DNA from: Methanomicrobiales archaeon
GTDB taxonomy: Archaea > Halobacteriota > Methanomicrobia > Methanomicrobiales > JACTUA01
Length of the DNA: 64,000 nt
Assembly (NCBI GenBank): GCA_015660865.1
Contig: JACTUA010000003.1
Span: forward strand, 1 to 64,000
Direction of reading: 5' to 3'
The notes under the pieces were generated by a model that saw only the letters and a list, made by a program, of their open reading frames with translations, ran no database searches and was not told where the DNA came from. Position numbers and translations under genes: made by a program. Below are positions 7,379 through 63,257 of this stretch, one piece after another (positions within the stretch are counted from its first letter, which is position 1; each line of letters opens with the position of its first letter).

Positions 7379-7463
7379 TGCGAGGGGTGAGATTTGAACT
7401 CACGAACCCCTACGAGAATGGACCCTGAATCCATCGCCTTTGACCTGGCTTGGCAACCCTCGC
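7379..7463 (-). tRNA. tRNA-Leu (anticodon CAG)
   Basis: On the minus strand the gene begins GCGAGGG and ends CCCTCGC plus discriminator A, giving a perfect 7-bp acceptor stem. The anticodon loop reads TTCAGGG, so the anticodon is CAG and the decoded codon CUG. A long variable arm lies before the T arm (GGTTCGTGAGTTCAAATCTCACC region), as expected for class II tRNA-Leu. CCA is not encoded. Confidence 0.95.
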
Positions 7464-7582
7464 GCACCGGAAGAATACAATATCAGACGACATAAAGATA
7501 GTGATACCGGCCTTGTCGTCGGAGAAGTTCACAATGGATTCCGTCCGGGGCGGCAGAATATGGCTTAAATTCATCATATTGT

Positions 7583-7631
7583 TGGGCTCTTGGGGGACTA
7601 CCGCCCCCGCCGCGGGCATCCCCCGTCGTGT
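7583..7631 (+). ncRNA. GC-rich structured intergenic element, copy A (candidate small RNA)
   Basis: This 49-base stretch matches the reverse complement of 40824-40873 with one substitution and one single-base indel. It contains GGGGG (7592-7596), which can pair with the CCCCC at 7604-7608 or with the one at 7620-7624, plus a GCCGCGGGC core. An AT-rich block with TTAAATTC lies roughly 15-30 bases upstream, compatible with a promoter. It points away from tRNA-Leu, whose 5' end is 119 bases upstream. It is not a conserved ORF because the indel shifts frame between copies. RNA status is inferred; the repeat itself is directly visible. Confidence 0.5.
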
Positions 7632-7702
7632 ACCGGAGTATATGAAGGGCGGTTTACGGTGACTGTGACGATCCCGCAGTCCCTGGTAGGACCCCATTTC
7701 CT

Positions 7703-10432
7703 CTACCAGAACCGGTGGGTGCGGATGAAGTTCCGCTCGGCCTTCAGGATCTCCCGGTAGAAGGCGTCCCCCTCGGTCATCGTGGCGAGGATCCGGGAGG
7801 CGATCTCGGGCCCGACGCCCCGCCCGGCGAGGGCGATGACCGCCTTCTTACCCGAGGAGAGGACGATGTTTGCGTTCCTGAGGAGCCTAACCTGGATGGC
7901 CTTCTCCTCCTCGTTCGCCGGCTTCCTCCGGACGAGAGCGCAGAGATCCTCCTCGTACGGCTTCACCGCGGCGATGAGCCGGGCGCTGCAGTTCGGGCAC
8001 TGGGGCCGGTCGGGCACCCGGGCCACCGGTGTCCTTGCATGCCACTTCCGGCAGTGAAGGCAGCAGAGGATCACCTCCTCGCGGTCGAGGCGCTGCTTGA
8101 GGGTCGCAAGGACTGCCTGGTCGGCGAGGGGCGGGGGGATCATGTCCCGGGAGGAGAAGATCCCCTCACGGCCGAGGATGGTGAGAGGCCCCGTGGCGAC
8201 CGTGACCTCCCCTTTCCTGATAGCGGTGAGAATGCTCGCGGCCCCCGGGACATCCATGTACCGGGTAAAGAGCTCGCGGTACGCCTCCTCCTGGATTATG
8301 GTGCCCTCGAAGAGATCGAGGAGGCGGTAGATGCTGAACCGCTCGTAGTCCGCGTCGACGTCGATCGCACCGAACTTCTTTGCTACCTGCACGAGCTTCC
8401 AGCGAAAGAGGGAGGTCCGCTTCAGGGCGAGGGCGAGGATGCCGTCAAGGTGGGCGGGATCGGTGGAGAGGAGGATCTCCTTCACCTGTTCAGGCCCGAC
8501 GGTGGATGGCAGGCGCAGGAGGAACCGGTAGGCCCCCACGTCGATCCCCACCGTCGTCCCGTGCCGGGCGGAGAGGAGGATGGAGAGGACCCGGGCCAGG
8601 GCCTCGTTCGCCTTGTGGCCTCCGCAGATGTTCGCCACCACCCCCTCATCCGATGCCTCCAGGGTTATGAGCCGGTCATCAGGGATCCGGTCCTTTACCC
8701 GGTCCATCCGCGCGAGGAATCCCGAGACAAACCGGACCGCCACTTCGTCCACAGGGTAGCGGGAGAAGTCCCGCTCGCGGCGGAGCCTCCCCACCTCGCG
8801 GGCGACCTCGAAGGGGACGGGTATCTGCTCGCCCTCCCAGGAGGGGAGCTCCCCCTTCGCCTTCTTCGCCGGTTCGACGGTGATCCTCTCGCTGTCCATG
8901 TCGAGGATGCGCCAGAGCTGCCCTTTTGCGATGAAGACCGCGCCTGTGTAGGCCCACCCGACGACGAAGGACTCGTCCAGCGTGGCAACCGTCCTGCGGG
9001 AGACCATGTCGAAGACCCGGATTTTCTTCTCGTCGTGGATCATGGAGAGGTTGAGAGAGAGGTACTTGCGGGTCCGGCCTGTTCTCCGGATGAGGTCCCC
9101 GTCGATTCGGATGAGCCGGTGCGAGGCCATCTGTTCGCAGACCCGGTCGAGGAGGGCGCCGGGGTCCGGGTAGCATCCCGAGCGGGAGAGGATTTCCAGG
9201 GCCTTCGCCCGGGAGATCTCGCCGTATTCGACGGCCATTGCCGCGACCTGGTTTGCGAGCGTATCGGCCGCCCCGATGTGGGGGACCACCGGTTCCACCT
9301 GGTTCTCCTTTGCCATCCGCGCGATGACCATGGACTCGAGGGTGTCGTCGAAACCGGTGGTGAGGATGGTGCCCCGGGAGATGGTGTGGAGCTGGTGGCC
9401 CGCACGCCCGACCCGCTGGACCAGGCGGGAGACCTCCCTGGGGGATCCGAACTGGATCACATGCCCGACCCGGCCGATGTCTATCCCGAGTTCCATCGAT
9501 GAGGTGCAGATGAGGGTGTGGATCTCGCCCCGCTTGAAACGCTCCTCGGCATCGACCCGCACCTCCTTTGAGAGGGACCCGTGGTGGACCTCCACGTCGC
9601 CTGTCTCGTACAGCTCGTGGCCCAGCGCCTCGGCCGTGACCCGGGTGTTCACGAAGACGAGGCTCGATCCCTTCCCGCCGATGCACCTCCCCACGTACCT
9701 CGCCTGGTCGGCGAAGTCCTCACCGGCGTATCGGACTCTGATCTCCAGGTGGGGGGTGACCGGGATCTCCACCACCTGGTACGGGCGGTTCCCGCAGAGG
9801 AATGCGGCGACATCCCCTGGGTTCCCTACCGTTGCGGAGAGGCCGATGCGCTGGAACTCTCCGGCATAGACAGCGAGCCGCTCCAGGGCGACCGAGAGCT
9901 GGGCACCCCGCTTCGACCCGGCAAGCTCGTGGATCTCGTCCACGATGACGTGGCGGACGCAGGCGAGGTGCTTGCGCAGCCTCTTTCCCATGAAGATGGC
10001 CTGGAGGGTCTCCGGCGTGGTGATGAGGAGGTGGGGCGGGTGGAGGGCCTGCCTCCTCCGCTCGGATGCCGAGGTGTCCCCGTGCCGGACCCCGACGGTC
10101 AGGCCCAGCTCCCTGCACCACCACTCCATCCTCTGAAGGATATCCCGGTTCAGGGAACGGAGCGGGGTGATGTAGAGGGCGCGGAACCCCGGGCCTTCCT
10201 CGCGGACGAGCCGGTCGAAGACCGGGAGCATGGCGGACTCGGTCTTCCCCGAGCCGGTGGGAGCGATGAGGACGAGATGTTTTCCGGCGAGGAGGGGAGG
10301 GATGGCCTCGGCCTGGGGCTCGGAGAGGTCCTTCCAGCCCCTCTTTCCCACAGCGTCCCTCACCCTCCCGTCGAGGAGGGAGAGGGTGTCACTCCTCCCC
10401 GAGGGAACCGAGGAGCCCGAGGTAGGTTCCAT
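7703..10432 (-). CDS. lhr: Lhr-type DEAD/DEAH superfamily 2 helicase
   Basis: A 909-residue ATP-dependent helicase. The N-terminal half carries the Lhr motifs in order: EPQAEAI (Q motif), APTGSGKTES (Walker A), DEIHEL (motif II), SATVG (III), FVNTR (IV), SMELGIDIGRVGH (V) and QRVGRAGH (VI). The C-terminal half is the long Lhr extension and includes a C-x2-C...C-x2-C zinc-ribbon-like segment near residues 795-820 (CLHC, CPNC). The ATG at 10432 is preceded by GGAGGTG at a 10-base spacing, which favours it over the ATG at 10453. It overlaps the 3' end of the metallophosphoesterase gene by 44 bases. Lhr proteins translocate 3'-5' on DNA and are linked to repair. Coupling to a phosphoesterase is a known arrangement. 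Confidence 0.9.
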   Translation of the reverse strand: MEPTSGSSVPSGRSDTLSLLDGRVRDAVGKRGWKDLSEPQAEAIPPLLAGKHLVLIAPTGSGKTESAMLPVFDRLVREEGPGFRALYITPLRSLNRDILQRMEWWCRELGLTVGVRHGDTSASERRRQALHPPHLLITTPETLQAIFMGKRLRKHLACVRHVIVDEIHELAGSKRGAQLSVALERLAVYAGEFQRIGLSATVGNPGDVAAFLCGNRPYQVVEIPVTPHLEIRVRYAGEDFADQARYVGRCIGGKGSSLVFVNTRVTAEALGHELYETGDVEVHHGSLSKEVRVDAEERFKRGEIHTLICTSSMELGIDIGRVGHVIQFGSPREVSRLVQRVGRAGHQLHTISRGTILTTGFDDTLESMVIARMAKENQVEPVVPHIGAADTLANQVAAMAVEYGEISRAKALEILSRSGCYPDPGALLDRVCEQMASHRLIRIDGDLIRRTGRTRKYLSLNLSMIHDEKKIRVFDMVSRRTVATLDESFVVGWAYTGAVFIAKGQLWRILDMDSERITVEPAKKAKGELPSWEGEQIPVPFEVAREVGRLRRERDFSRYPVDEVAVRFVSGFLARMDRVKDRIPDDRLITLEASDEGVVANICGGHKANEALARVLSILLSARHGTTVGIDVGAYRFLLRLPSTVGPEQVKEILLSTDPAHLDGILALALKRTSLFRWKLVQVAKKFGAIDVDADYERFSIYRLLDLFEGTIIQEEAYRELFTRYMDVPGAASILTAIRKGEVTVATGPLTILGREGIFSSRDMIPPPLADQAVLATLKQRLDREEVILCCLHCRKWHARTPVARVPDRPQCPNCSARLIAAVKPYEEDLCALVRRKPANEEEKAIQVRLLRNANIVLSSGKKAVIALAGRGVGPEIASRILATMTEGDAFYREILKAERNFIRTHRFW

Positions 10433-11135
10433 CGGTGAGAAACACCTCCGCATTCCCGAAGTCCATGCACCTGGAGAGGGGGCCCAGGTTGCTCTCCTTC
10501 ATCCGGGTGAGATCGAAGCCGGTGAACTCGTTGAAGGCCGGCATGACGAGAACCCGTGTGGTGCCGGCCCCCCCCGCAGCACCCGCGAGCCCGAGGCAGC
10601 CCTCGTCAACCGTGGTGAGAAGGTAGGCCCGGTCGCGCAAGGCGCACCCGACCTCGTCCCGAAGGGTGACCATAGGGTGGTGGTGCCCGATGACGAGGAG
10701 GTGCCCGATGAGGGAGGGATCCGGGTAGGTGTGGCCGTGGAGGTAGCCCACGCCGTCGAGGAGGGCGCCCCGCATGGGGAGCAGCTCCCCCTCTTCCAGG
10801 AATCGTTCGAGACCCCCGTCGTGGTTGCCGGGCACCACTTTCAGGGACACGCGTGATCGGATTGCTTCGAGCAGGTCAGGGATCTCATGGTACTCCTGGC
10901 GCGTGGTGAGGGGGACCGAGTGCTTCACGTCTCCGAGGAGGATGACGAGATCGGGTTTTCCCTCGTCGATGCAGGCAAGGACACGGTCAAGCCTCCCCCC
11001 GGTCTGGCTCGGGATGTGGACCCCGTGCACATCGAGGTCTGACTCGATCCCGATGTGGAGGTCTGCGATGACGAGGACCCGGTCCGTATGCTCGATGACG
11101 AGAGCCGGCCCCTCGGGAAGGAAGTTGAGCGCCAT
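10389..11135 (-). CDS. ICC-like metallophosphoesterase (COG1407)
   Basis: A 248-residue calcineurin-like phosphoesterase with the two-metal motifs ADLHIG, GDVKHS, GNHDGG and GHHHP in the correct order. The ATG at 11135 lies 5 bases after the stop of the RPA-associated gene and matches the family N-terminus; an earlier in-frame codon at 11180 would overlap that gene. It sits between an OB-fold protein and the Lhr helicase, so a nucleic-acid end-processing role in repair is inferred. The family is usually encoded next to Lhr in archaea, and in bacteria a phosphoesterase is found with Lhr, a ligase and an exonuclease. Confidence 0.87.
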   Translation of the reverse strand: MALNFLPEGPALVIEHTDRVLVIADLHIGIESDLDVHGVHIPSQTGGRLDRVLACIDEGKPDLVILLGDVKHSVPLTTRQEYHEIPDLLEAIRSRVSLKVVPGNHDGGLERFLEEGELLPMRGALLDGVGYLHGHTYPDPSLIGHLLVIGHHHPMVTLRDEVGCALRDRAYLLTTVDEGCLGLAGAAGGAGTTRVLVMPAFNEFTGFDLTRMKESNLGPLSRCMDFGNAEVFLTDGTYLGLLGSLGEE

Positions 11136-37299: not shown

Positions 37300-37336
37300 C
37301 CGGGGAGACTCGGATCCCTCCCCGGATTCAATTTTT
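37300..37336 (+). terminator. Hairpin plus T-tract terminator after ilvE
   Basis: CCGGGGAG (37300-37307) and CTCCCCGG (37318-37325) form a perfect 8-bp stem with a 10-base loop, followed by TTTTT at 37332. It resembles an intrinsic terminator for ilvE and overlaps the 3' end of the convergent histidine kinase gene. Confidence 0.65.
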
Positions 37337-40300
37337 CTTCTTCTCTTCTTCCACGGTGTTCTTTGTATCAGGGATCCGGATGGTATACCCTGTCCCTCCA
37401 GCCCGGTCCAGGGTGATGGTCCCGTCCACCTGGGAGACGAGGCCGTGAATGAGCCTCATCCCGAGGGTATTCGACTTCTGCCAGTCGAAGGTCTCGGGGA
37501 TTCCCACCCCGTTGTCAGCGATCCGGATACTGTATGCCTCGCCGGATTTTTCGGCGGAGATGGAGATCTTTCCCTGCCTGCCGTCGGGAAATGCATACTT
37601 GAGGGAGTTGGTGATGATCTCGTTCAGGATCAACCCCACGGGGACGGCCAGGTTAATATCGAGGAAGATCCCGTGGATATCGAGGTCCAGCTCGACCTTC
37701 TGCGATATCTTCTGGGATCTCAGCAGCTCCTCGGTAAGCTTCGAGATATAGTCGGCAAAGTCGATCCTCGAGAGCTCCTGGGTCTTGTACAGGCGTTCGT
37801 GGACGAGAGACATCGCCCGTACCCGGGTCTGGGTGTCGGTCAGTGCCATGATCGTCTTGGGATCGCCCACCTTCTGGATCTGGAGGTTCATGAGGCTGTT
37901 CACGATCTGGAGGTTGTTCTTGACCCGGTGGTGGATCTCGCGGAGCATCACCTCCTTCTCCCTGAGGGACTCGGCTATCTGGTCCGCCATCTTCTTTCGC
38001 TCGGTGACGTCGATAATGGTCGCGTACACGGCGGGGCGGCCATGGAAGATCATTGACGAGCCGTATGCCTCGGCATCGATGATCGTTCCATCCTTCCGGA
38101 CTGCCCTGTACTCGAGGTGCTCAGCAGGCATGTCCCCGCGGAGCATCCGTCCGAGCGCATCCTTCACCATCGGCAGGTCCTCGGCCAGGATCAACGATTC
38201 AAAGGCCCTGTTGAGTAGCTCTTCCCGGGGATACCCGGCTATCTCGGCCAGCTTCGAGTTGGCGTAATGCACGACCCCGTCCTGGACGAGGAATATCCCC
38301 ACGGACGAATGTTCGACCGGGTTCCGGAACATCTCCTCGGACTCCCGGAGCGCAGTCTCGGTCTGTTTCCTGATTGTAATATCACGGGTATAGATCCTGA
38401 CTGTCCCGATCTGGGGGGTATTGGAGATATTTTCGAGGAATATCCTCTTCCCGACCTGAACCTCCCTCTCGATAGCATCGGTCTCACCTTTCAGGACACC
38501 GGGAAGGATCGCCAGGAGATCATGGGGCAGGAAGAGATGGGGATCATCCGGGACGCCCGCCAAAAGGAGGGACTCTGTGACAGCCGGGTTCACATAGAGG
38601 ATGTCGCCAGCGGGGTTCAGCTCCAGGACGGGGTTCGGGTTCAGCTCCGGGAACGACGCGAGGTGGGCGATCTCCTCTTCTGCCCGTTTCCGGTCGGTGA
38701 TGTCCCGGAAGATGCCGAGCTGGTACTGCCTGCCCTGCATGGTGATTGGGGTGGAACTGATATCGGCTAAATAGGCCGTGCCGTCTTTGCGCTGTATTAC
38801 TATGTCAGAAGACAGGGCAGTCTCCCCGCGGACCTGCTTCTTGAACTGCTCGATCGCTGCCGGCCGAGCTGCCGGAGGGACGAGGTCGGTCACTGAGAAG
38901 CTGAACAGTTCCGCCTTCGTATAGCCGGTCTGTTTCATAATGGCTGCATTTGCCATCACGAACCGGCGTGTTTCCGAGTCAGCAAGGAGCAATCCGTCCG
39001 GTGAAGAGTCAAACAAGGTGCGGAATTTCTGCTCGGATTCAGTGAGGGCTTTTTCTGTTGCTCTCCGTTCCGTGATATCACGCGCTACCCCGAGAATCGC
39101 AGTGACATTTCCCGTCTCATCTTTTAACGGCACCAGACTGGTGTCAATCCATAATTCCTGCGTACCGAAATGAATTTTCTCTTCCGTTTGAACGTGCTCT
39201 CCCGTTTTGAATATATTCTTTAAAAGAATGCCTTGTGCATCTGCAATATCAGATGGGAAAAGATTCTTTCTTGGTGTTCCAATCACCTGATCGTAAGAAC
39301 GGCGGAACAATTTCAGCGCAGCGGTATTGACGTACTTTATGGTATCATCCCTGCCAACGATGAAGATCTGATCAGGTGACGCTTCCGCTAAGGTACGATA
39401 CCGTTCTTCGCTCTCCCTGATTACCTCTTCCGCCCTTTTCCGCTCGGTGATATCCTTGAAGGTGATGAGGAGGTATCTCTTTCCAGCAATGATGACAAGG
39501 GCAAAGCTGATATCGGCGTAAAAGATGCTCCCGTCCCGTCGCCTGAACCTGCCGTCGTTGCGTATCCCCTCTTCTCCCCTGCTGTATTTACCGATCTGTT
39601 CATAGATGAAAGGCAGGTCTTCCCGGGGGTGTATGTCGGCGACATCCAGGTTCGGAAACCTCCCCTGATCGTAACCCAGCATCTTCGCGCACGCATTGTT
39701 ACAGGAAAAGAATTTCCTGGTATCCAGATCCACGAGGAACATCCCATCGCTCGCATGATCGAAGATAACCCTAAATTTTTCTTCCGACTCTTTCAGCGCA
39801 TCTTCCGCCCGCCTGCTCTCGGTAACGTCGACGCCGATAGCGATGAAACGCTCATCTTTATCACCGTCTCCCGGGATCATCCTGGTGTTCCAGGAGATGA
39901 TCTTCCGGTCGCCGTTCCTGCACTGGATGGTAGTCTCCAGGTTCTCGAAGAAATTATTCTCCCCGATGATCTTTGTGATCTTTCCCGTTATTCTATCCCG
40001 GTACTCCTTCTCCGGATACAGCAGCTTCCAGATATCGTTTCTTCCGATTACCTCCGCCGCGGTGTACCCGGTGATCCGCTCCGCGGCGTTGTTCCAGATC
40101 TGAATCCTCCCTCTGGAGTCGAGGAGCATAAGGAGCACGTTGGCATTCATGAGGCTGCTCTCCTGGATATCCGTGACTCTCTTGGTTTCATCCCGGATCC
40201 GGACAAGGCGCTCTGAAAGGTAGGCAACGAGGGCCGCAATCCCCAGGAAGACAAAGAACCGGATTGCCGCTTCCAGGATCATTGTAGGATTTGCGGGGAA

Positions 40301-40621
40301 GAAATGCGCGACAAGCCCCACGTAGGAGAGGCCGAGGAGGGTCTCGAGGTAGACCCCTTTTCTCCTATAATGGTAAGCGAGGAGGACGATGGGGAAGTAG
40401 TAGAGATGCATGAAGACGATGGTGATCCCGCGGGAGAGGCAGTAGAACGAAAGAAAGGTTACAGCAGCCGCACTACCCAGGATCAGGGCCCGCCAGGTGT
40501 TCTCGGACAGGGGTACAGGTAAAATGTGCGATTTTCCCGTGCCCGTGGAGGGATCCTCTGGTTCTTGGATAGCTTCAGCTTCTGTTATAGCTCCAGCTCC
40601 TATGGGATGGAGTTTCTCCAC
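37328..40621 (-). CDS. Membrane-bound multi-PAS sensor histidine kinase
   Basis: A 1097-residue sensor. After a cytoplasmic start, about residues 43-150 contain four hydrophobic segments (LILGSAAAVTFLSFY, VFMHLYYFPIVLLAY and others). Six PAS/PAC units follow, each ending in a DITERKRAE-like signature, between about 160 and 890; the fifth is divergent. The transmitter is of the HisKA_2 type with the phospho-acceptor in MLREIHHRVKNNLQIV, and the HATPase domain has NEIITNSLKYA and DNGVGIPE. The start appears to be GTG at 40621. No response regulator is adjacent, as is common for archaeal multi-PAS kinases. The signal is unknown; several PAS domains could bind flavin, haem or small ligands. Confidence 0.93.
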   Translation of the reverse strand: MEKLHPIGAGAITEAEAIQEPEDPSTGTGKSHILPVPLSENTWRALILGSAAAVTFLSFYCLSRGITIVFMHLYYFPIVLLAYHYRRKGVYLETLLGLSYVGLVAHFFPANPTMILEAAIRFFVFLGIAALVAYLSERLVRIRDETKRVTDIQESSLMNANVLLMLLDSRGRIQIWNNAAERITGYTAAEVIGRNDIWKLLYPEKEYRDRITGKITKIIGENNFFENLETTIQCRNGDRKIISWNTRMIPGDGDKDERFIAIGVDVTESRRAEDALKESEEKFRVIFDHASDGMFLVDLDTRKFFSCNNACAKMLGYDQGRFPNLDVADIHPREDLPFIYEQIGKYSRGEEGIRNDGRFRRRDGSIFYADISFALVIIAGKRYLLITFKDITERKRAEEVIRESEERYRTLAEASPDQIFIVGRDDTIKYVNTAALKLFRRSYDQVIGTPRKNLFPSDIADAQGILLKNIFKTGEHVQTEEKIHFGTQELWIDTSLVPLKDETGNVTAILGVARDITERRATEKALTESEQKFRTLFDSSPDGLLLADSETRRFVMANAAIMKQTGYTKAELFSFSVTDLVPPAARPAAIEQFKKQVRGETALSSDIVIQRKDGTAYLADISSTPITMQGRQYQLGIFRDITDRKRAEEEIAHLASFPELNPNPVLELNPAGDILYVNPAVTESLLLAGVPDDPHLFLPHDLLAILPGVLKGETDAIEREVQVGKRIFLENISNTPQIGTVRIYTRDITIRKQTETALRESEEMFRNPVEHSSVGIFLVQDGVVHYANSKLAEIAGYPREELLNRAFESLILAEDLPMVKDALGRMLRGDMPAEHLEYRAVRKDGTIIDAEAYGSSMIFHGRPAVYATIIDVTERKKMADQIAESLREKEVMLREIHHRVKNNLQIVNSLMNLQIQKVGDPKTIMALTDTQTRVRAMSLVHERLYKTQELSRIDFADYISKLTEELLRSQKISQKVELDLDIHGIFLDINLAVPVGLILNEIITNSLKYAFPDGRQGKISISAEKSGEAYSIRIADNGVGIPETFDWQKSNTLGMRLIHGLVSQVDGTITLDRAGGTGYTIRIPDTKNTVEEEKKKN

Positions 40622-41010
40622 CGAAGGTAAATAGTTTCATGCGCACAGCCTTCGATCGCGTCATCCCGGCTGACTGTTTCCACCCGTGAAGAGGCCCAAT
40701 CATTCCCCTGCAAACGAACAGGTATTTTTTCGAACATACGGCGTCCCCCACCGTGGGGATAGAGCCCTTCAGAGGCACATGGAATCTGGACTTCCGAGAA
40801 ACCTTTCCATCACCGGTTCCAACACACGACGGGGGATGCCCGCGGGCGGGGGCGGAAGTCCCCCAAGAGCCCAGTAAAGGAAGGCGTATATTCTATACTC
40901 CGGGGATTTCGTGATGAACCGATCCAGAAGAATCTACACGTAAGCAGAACCCGCGAGAATCCACTCTATCCCGGAACCTTTTTGATCTTTCACACGCAAC
41001 GGTATCCGGC
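40622..41010. other. Intergenic region between the histidine kinase and tRNA-Glu
   Basis: No protein gene is supported in these 389 bases. The region holds copy B of the repeated GC-rich element on the minus strand (40824-40873) with a TATA-like GTATAGAATATACGCC (minus strand, about 40884-40899) upstream of it, and the promoter region of tRNA-Glu with CTTTTTGATC near 40978. Confidence 0.6.
40824..40873 (-). ncRNA. GC-rich structured intergenic element, copy B (candidate small RNA)
   Basis: On the minus strand this 50-base stretch reads like copy A at 7583-7631, with one substitution and one extra C. It has the same GGGGGACT, CCGCCCCCG, GCGGGCATCCCCC and GTCGTGT blocks. The minus strand carries GTATAGAATATACGCC some 12-25 bases upstream, a plausible archaeal promoter. 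The 5' end of tRNA-Glu lies 137 bases away on the opposite strand, again a head-to-head arrangement. Confidence 0.5.
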
Positions 41011-41085
41011 GCTGCTATAGTGTAGACCGGCCAATCATCCCGGCCTTTCACGCCGGGGACTGGGGTTCAAATCCCCATAGCAGCA
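41011..41085 (+). tRNA. tRNA-Glu (anticodon TTC)
   Basis: The acceptor stem GCTGCTA pairs with TAGCAGC, with discriminator A. The anticodon stem CCGGC/GCCGG encloses the loop CTTTCAC, giving anticodon TTC. The T arm is CTGGGGTTCAAATCCCCA. CCA is not encoded. An AT-rich radical SAM gene ends 47 bases downstream. Confidence 0.95.
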
Positions 41086-41132
41086 CTTTGATGCCGAAGG
41101 TCCCAATCCTGTTTTAAAGTACTGTAATGAGA

Positions 41133-63101: not shown

Positions 63102-63257
63102 GGGGCTGTGGCCTAGACCGGTATGGCGACGGGCTCCAGCGGTATTTGCGGGTGATGAACAATGGGTCTTCTGAACGATTGGGATGATGATCCGTTGGAG
63201 CACTGACGCATGTCGAAGAGACCCGTCGATCGTGAGTTCAAATCTCACCAGCCCCAC
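63102..63257 (+). tRNA. tRNA-Trp (anticodon CCA) with an intron
   Basis: The acceptor stem GGGGCTG pairs with CAGCCCC plus discriminator A at 63257. The anticodon stem ACGGG (63129-63133) pairs with CCCGT (63222-63226), and the anticodon CCA is at 63136-63138. The loop is interrupted after position 37 by an intron of about 81 bases (63140-63220). The mature tRNA is 75 bases. The intron has the box C/D features listed separately. Confidence 0.93.
63140..63220 (+). ncRNA. Box C/D guide RNA within the tRNA-Trp intron
   Basis: Box C GTGATGA (63152-63158), D' CTGA (63171-63174), C' ATGATGA (63184-63190) and D CTGA (63203-63206) are all present in order. By the N+5 rule the D guide (TTGGAGCA) pairs with GCTCCA of the anticodon loop and points to C34 (63136). 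The D' guide (ATGGGTCTT) pairs with the splice-site region AGACCCG and points to position 39 (63222). This is the known function of the euryarchaeal tRNA-Trp intron, directing 2'-O-methylation at positions 34 and 39. Intron ends are placed by the standard 37/38 position. Confidence 0.85.

What the first reader, a model, noticed from the sequence alone, without database searches (positions are those of the whole stretch)
7583..7631. A GC-rich intergenic element, copy A, repeated once more in the window and head-to-head with tRNA genes
Bases 7583-7631 (plus) match 40824-40873 (minus) with one substitution and one indel. Each copy points away from a tRNA gene: the distance from copy start to tRNA 5' end is 119 bases for tRNA-Leu and 137 for tRNA-Glu. 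Both are preceded by AT-rich TATA-like sequence, and both contain G5/C5 tracts that can pair. Flanking DNA outside the element differs. This is what a small family of structured RNAs, each with its own promoter, would look like. Because no protein reading frame is conserved between copies, selection on RNA or DNA structure is the simplest inference.
Basis: partly seen in the sequence, partly recalled or inferred. Interest (0 to 1): 0.8.

Follow-up and report, generated by a model that had tools for sequence, protein, structure and literature searches.

The report
Paired-hairpin DNA repeat in methanogens
The two look-alike stretches are worn copies of a palindromic DNA repeat found at roughly 35 places in this methanogen genome, mostly between genes that point at each other, and its hairpin motif also turns up inside unrelated jumping genes of archaea and gut bacteria.

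Summary
In detail: 7584-7631(+) and 40824-40873(-) are near-identical. They are not RNA genes tied to tRNAs. They are truncated members of a dispersed, strand-symmetric repeat: two ~44-56-nt GC-rich hairpin arms (GACGCTCYYGGGGG-tip-CCCCCGCCGC..GGCATCCCCC) in inverted orientation, ~175 bp in all, at roughly 35 loci of this Methanomicrobiales genome. Of 33 scorable copies 21 lie between convergent genes (control gaps 7/46, Fisher p=1.3e-5); only 3/35 lie near a tRNA; TATA-like boxes do not clearly exceed shuffles. Several sites, copy A's included, are occupied in another genus. Tips vary in sequence but stay self-complementary. The family occurs in two of the order's families (70/232 genomes) and nowhere else in a phylum sample. 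No Y1/RAYT transposase was found: REP-like in build and placement, but not a REPIN/RAYT member. In Methanoregulaceae the arm sits inside MITEs of two unrelated end types with 7-8-bp target duplications; in Bacteroidales inside IS30 and IS110 noncoding ends. Best reading: a REP/MITE-like palindrome, probably acting at gene 3' ends as a two-way hairpin barrier (inferred). Most interesting open point: a hairpin module shared by unrelated mobile elements across two domains.

The parts
7576..7652 (+). Copy A: left arm (core 7584-7631; covariance-model hit 7580-7623) plus part of the interior; right half missing
   Evidence: ~40-50 bp beyond the stop codon of the Lhr-type helicase gene; an arm also lies 3' of the orthologous gene in G007
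40824..40876 (-). Copy B: left arm (covariance-model hit 40832-40876)
40739..40761 (-). Copy B: remnant of the right half (CTATCCCCACGGTGGGGGACGCC), 91% to the right-half consensus; the rest of the right arm is lost
7379..7463 (-). tRNA-Leu(CAG): neighbour, not part of the element
   Evidence: tRNA proximity seen in only 3 of 35 copies
41011..41086 (+). tRNA-Glu(TTC): neighbour, not part of the element
7703..10453 (-). Lhr-type DEAD helicase gene whose 3' end faces copy A
37328..40621 (-). PAS/histidine kinase gene; copy B lies upstream of its start, an untypical (5'-side) location

Best explanation
The two stretches are decayed copies of a dispersed palindromic repeat, REP/MITE-like in build. 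The intact form is two GC-rich hairpin arms in inverted orientation that can pair with each other over ~30 bp (long hairpin or cruciform) or fold singly. Shown: multi-copy, inverted-dimer build, intergenic, enriched between convergent genes, some sites kept across genera, hairpin tips that change sequence but stay self-complementary, restricted to two families of the order. Inferred: it spread by transposition in trans (in Methanoregulaceae the same arm is inside MITEs with target duplications), and many copies are now kept in place because a strand-symmetric hairpin at the ends of transcription units stops or insulates read-through and/or protects mRNA 3' ends in both directions.
For: Copies and build. 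Inter-arm stem of ~29 pairs. Convergent placement 21/33 vs 7/46 control gaps, p=1.3e-5; f5 loci 7 convergent, 9 tandem, 0 divergent. Site conservation: own L076 = G001 L295 (same genus), both elements of own L032 = G009 L002, own L034 = G007 L116, own L093 = G009 L015, copy A = G007 L322. Tip self-complementarity: 80 distinct tips, mean z -1.52, 90% below zero. Lineage: 70/232 genomes of the order, almost all in two families; in a 394-genome phylum sample only those two families. MITE form with TIR and 7-8-bp duplications in Methanoregulaceae.
Against: No movement shown in the window's own lineage: no target duplications around own copies (5.14 vs 5.13 shuffled) and no transposase identified (no Y1 and no IS110 in the genome). 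The main stem is invariant, so it gives no covariation support, and single copies do not fold better than shuffles. A third of the 3' flanks already have a T5 tract before the element (14 of 42), so it need not be the terminator. Retained sites were found by looking at fetched loci, not by a genome-wide orthologue table. No expression data. Gene calls for the context test are my own codon-usage calls.
Confidence: 0.6

Rival explanations
1. A family of small structured RNA genes, each with its own promoter.
For: Structure under selection; AT-rich DNA upstream of both window copies.
Against: TATA-like motif at the expected place in 2/25 copies; what precedes the core is a T-rich conserved stretch, part of the element; no Rfam match; placement between convergent 3' ends; many copies truncated or reduced to one arm.
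Confidence: 0.12
2. Neutral MITE relics: copies are found at gene ends only because insertions elsewhere were purged; no present function.
For: True MITE forms in Methanoregulaceae; truncations; absence between divergent genes in f5.
Against: Sites kept in another genus while the rest of the intergenic DNA has diverged; tips keep complementarity while changing sequence, although that could also reflect selection during spread.
Confidence: 0.25
3. A REPIN/BIME system of the known kind, mobilised by a RAYT (Y1 HUH) transposase.
For: Inverted-dimer build and placement as described for bacterial REPs (PMC3733652).
Against: No Y1 transposase in the genome; no GTAG tag; arms 44-56 nt.
Confidence: 0.03

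Closest known systems
Bacterial REP elements / BIMEs and REPINs (GTAG superfamily, RAYT-associated)
   Same: Short GC-rich palindromic units, often paired in inverted orientation, extragenic, mainly between convergent or same-direction genes next to 3' ends (PMC3733652).
   Different: Archaeal host; different unit sequence and length; no GTAG tag; no RAYT/Y1 gene in the genome.
CGTC-tagged REPs (PMC3733652)
   Same: Palindromic, dimeric, no dedicated transposase known.
   Different: Those have 8-9-bp stems that almost always begin with A-T pairs, and a CCA-like tail; here the stem is G5/C5 and the outer end reads GACG/GGGC. The paper's main text names no archaeal host.
Prokaryotic MITEs
   Same: In Methanoregulaceae the arm lies inside ~180-270-bp elements with terminal inverted repeats and 7-8-bp target duplications.
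   Different: Own-genome copies show no duplications; the same arm occurs in elements with two unrelated kinds of ends, so it is not the transposase recognition end.
Noncoding ends of IS110 (bridge RNA / seekRNA) and IS30 elements
   Same: In Bacteroidales the arm lies 3' of an IS110 transposase gene and between the end and start of an IS30 transposase gene.
   Different: No IS110 in the own genome; because unrelated IS30 elements carry it too, it cannot be an IS110-specific guide RNA.

Membership tests
REP-type repeat (general sense) | multi-copy short extragenic palindrome | tested here: met
   roughly 35 loci, intergenic
REP-type repeat (general sense) | units paired in inverted orientation | tested here: met
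REP-type repeat (general sense) | location between convergent/same-direction genes near 3' ends | tested here: met
   21 convergent, 9 tandem, 3 divergent
GTAG REP / REPIN-RAYT | GTAG tag next to the stem | tested here: not met
   outer ends read GACGCTC or GGGCTC
GTAG REP / REPIN-RAYT | RAYT (Y1_Tnp, PF01797) in the genome | tested here: not met
   0 matches; control genomes ring in 5 of 14
CGTC REP | CGTC tag followed by a stem of 8-9 bp beginning with A-T pairs | tested here: not met
   arm sequences, against PMC3733652
MITE | terminal inverted repeats plus target duplication, Methanoregulaceae copies | tested here: met
   two end types; duplications GAAAAATT (L141), AAAAATTA (L140), TAGATAA (L167, read by eye); 6.83/8 vs 5.34 shuffled, 4 of 500
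MITE | target duplication around own-genome copies | tested here: not met
   5.14 vs 5.13 shuffled
Small RNA gene with own promoter | TATA box at a fixed distance in the copies | tested here: not met
   2/25, shuffles 0.76 +- 0.83
Small RNA gene with own promoter | transcript | not testable with these tools
   no RNA data
Known Rfam family | match at gathering or relaxed threshold | tested here: not met
HDV-like ribozyme | conserved P1 pairing | tested here: not met
   the strand order looked similar, but the GACGC/GCGU pairing is absent in own left arms and in Bacteroidales arms (by inspection)
IS110 bridge/seekRNA | IS110 transposase in the host | tested here: not met
   PF01548: 0 in own genome and in G001, G002, G007, G009

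The most novel reading that the evidence does not exclude
The ~45-nt hairpin arm is a portable noncoding module with one job, acquired repeatedly by unrelated mobile elements in two domains (MITEs of two end types and paired gene-end repeats in methanogens; IS30 and IS110 ends in Bacteroidales; possibly repA-side origin regions of alphaproteobacterial plasmids), and recognised by, or acting on, something shared by archaea and bacteria such as the transcription elongation machinery or a topoisomerase.
Probability: 0.3. Interest if true: 0.75.

Novelty: new variant of a known kind. Interest (0 to 1): 0.52.

Why it matters
REP-like repeats are described mainly from bacteria, where their spread is tied to RAYT transposases. 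A large, old, dimeric REP-like family in methanogens without a RAYT, with sites kept across genera at gene ends, gives a second system for asking what such palindromes do. The same arm inside unrelated insertion sequences of gut Bacteroidales and inside methanogen MITEs makes a shared function of a short hairpin across domains directly testable.

Tried and rejected
tRNA-associated RNA genes: rejected (3/35 near a tRNA). Own promoters: not supported. Rfam families: none. REPIN/RAYT: no Y1 gene. HDV-like ribozyme: strand order looked suggestive but P1 is not conserved (by inspection of arms). IS110 guide RNA: no IS110 in the host, and IS30 carries the arm too. Single-stranded phage origin: the 5.7-kb 'Bacteriophage sp.' record MT838529 turned out to hold an IS30 beside chromosomal-type genes, and the IMG/VR contig an IS30-type end in tailed-phage genes. 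Target duplications in own copies: none. Energy z-scores of single copies: not better than shuffles, because GC-rich shuffles fold well. Compensatory changes in the main stem: none, it is invariant.

Full report
Observation. The tRNA genes are where stated. Neither copy lies in a convincing protein gene.

Copy number and true extent. A search of the window's own genome (1.94 Mb, 9 contigs) with the core gives 22 matches at E<=1e-4; an 18-mer of the core with up to 3 mismatches gives 27 hits against 1 for the reversed control; a search with the other end gives about 20 strong hits. Together these make roughly 35 loci. Aligning them shows a ~175-bp element: left arm TGGGCTCTTGGGGGACTWCCGCCCCCGCCGCGGGCAYCCCCC, an interior with conserved GTGAAGGACGGTTTT and CCTATCCTCAC (themselves an imperfect inverted repeat), and a right arm that, read on the other strand, is GACGCTCCTGGGGG-tip-CCCCCGCCGCTGTGGCGTCCCCC. 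The consensus fold pairs the two arms over ~29 base pairs. Copy A of the window keeps only the left half; copy B keeps the left arm and a stub of the right half. Other loci show single arms, fused ends (L052) and arms with long inserted hairpins in the tip.

The arm as unit. Thirty-eight arms were aligned (A1) and made into a covariance model (R1). In 394 genomes sampled from the phylum only members of these two families match. The window has exactly two arms.

Structure. The G5/C5 stem is invariant and so gives no covariation evidence. The tips between G5 and C5 do: 114 distinct tips, of which 80 are 9 nt or longer; closed by the stem they fold better than shuffles in 90% of cases, mean z -1.52, with unrelated sequences such as CATGCAAGCATG, GGACCTGACGGTCC, CGGTTTAGGCCG and CTACGGCATCTGATGCCTCCG. 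Tips are related by descent in part, so the z-scores are not independent. Single whole copies do not fold better than shuffles.

Placement. With codon-usage gene calls, 21 of 33 scorable own copies lie between convergent genes, 9 between tandem, 3 between divergent, against 7 convergent of 46 other gaps of 100 bp or more (Fisher p=1.3e-5, odds ratio 9.75). Methanoregulaceae loci: 7 convergent, 9 tandem, 0 divergent. tRNA genes within 300 bp: 3 of 35, two of which are the window's. TATA-like boxes 22-36 bases before the core: 2 of 25, shuffles 0.76 +- 0.83. A T5 tract lies between stop codon and element in 14 of 42 3' flanks, so some genes may have an ordinary archaeal terminator of their own.

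Age. Comparing fetched loci, the same intergenic site carries the element in the sister species (own L076 and G001 L295, flanking genes 81-85% identical, intergenic DNA otherwise diverged) and in another genus (both elements around one small gene in L032 and L002; 3' of the same genes in L034/L116 and L093/L015). For copy A, the orthologous Lhr helicase gene of G007 also has an arm ~75-120 bases beyond its stop, while in G004 and G005 a gene abuts directly and there is no element. For copy B no arm was found upstream of tRNA-Glu in G002; G001 was cut by a contig end. My rough expectation for exact site sharing by chance is about 0.5 in the ~25 loci compared, against at least four seen; this is an estimate, not a formal test.

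Mobility. Own copies show no target duplication, and the genome has no Y1 transposase and no IS110. In Methanoregulaceae, however, the same arm lies inside 180-270-bp elements with terminal inverted repeats GCTCTGTAGAAA (six elements; flanking 8-mers match 6.83/8 on average versus 5.34 shuffled, 4 of 500 shuffles as good; exact GAAAAATT in L141) and, separately, GGGTATAGT...ACTATACCC (AAAAATTA in L140; TAGATAA in L167, read by eye from the printed flanks). So the arm is cargo of at least two unrelated MITE types. L167 is filed as Bacteroidota but looks like a misbinned methanogen contig.

Across domains. There it lies within repeated units: 3' of an IS110 transposase gene (L219; NCBIfam NF033542, E 3e-66) and between the end and the start of IS30 transposase genes (L271, L294; NF033563). 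Model scores are 48-51 bits. In 396 Bacteroidota genomes spread over the phylum only Duncaniella itself matched, so it is local to some gut lineages. A weaker likeness (28 bits at best, E 0.0016) lies 360-500 bases from repA in plasmids of Acetobacteraceae, Methylorubrum and Sphingomonadales; I treat this as a lead only.

Mechanism. Shown: palindromic dimer, gene-end placement, conservation of some sites, self-complementary variable tips. Inferred: spread by transposition in trans, now kept as a strand-symmetric hairpin that limits read-through or protects 3' ends of converging transcripts. Alternatives such as gyrase binding (proposed for bacterial BIMEs; from general knowledge) cannot be separated here.

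Comparison with the known. Bacterial REPs are small palindromes, often inverted dimers, mainly between convergent and same-direction genes (PMC3733652). The present family works like them in build and placement, but fails the defining tests for GTAG/RAYT REPs and for CGTC REPs, and that paper's main text names no archaeal host. I found no paper describing this family; the library holds only open-licence papers.

Verdict. Real, not RNA genes beside tRNAs, but a REP/MITE-like archaeal repeat of some interest because of its age, its gene-end placement and the cross-domain sharing of its arm.

Noticed in passing
63102-63256 (+): A tRNA gene with a long intron that contains a C/D-box sR3 RNA (63148-63208; Rfam RF01133, 56.7 bits); ARAGORN missed this split tRNA. 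It resembles the intron-encoded guide RNA known from archaeal tRNA-Trp.
   Followed up: no
L290, L291, L292, L293 around 2501-2590: Alphaproteobacterial plasmids carry CTCTTGGGGGCTCCGCCCCC...GGCATCCCCC, 360-500 bases from repA, with hairpins inserted between the two halves; likeness to the arm is 18-28 bits.
   Followed up: partly
L003, L008, L012, L016, L019 (f1 genus g2): A second hairpin family (GGGACCGGGAGGGGG-tip-CCCCCTCCCG) follows or replaces the right half of the element; in G002 it also stands 3' of the Lhr helicase gene, where the window has copy A.
   Followed up: no
L082 1509-1600, L104 1349-1435, L295 about 500-700: Some arm tips have grown by insertion of further perfect hairpins (GAGGTCGGTTTTTTACGAAACCTCCC-like, CGAGCGACGAAGTCGCGAG-like), keeping the G5/C5 stem.
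   Followed up: no
L294 (MT838529) and L167: MT838529 is recorded as a bacteriophage but the stretch read holds an IS30 and chromosomal-type genes; L167 is filed under a Bacteroidota MAG but shares MITE ends with methanogen contigs (L222).
   Followed up: partly
G232 (Duncaniella) contigs C8, C25, C43, C79: Draft contigs repeatedly break at the arm, consistent with a multi-copy or hard-to-sequence hairpin; copies in draft genomes are therefore likely undercounted.
   Followed up: no
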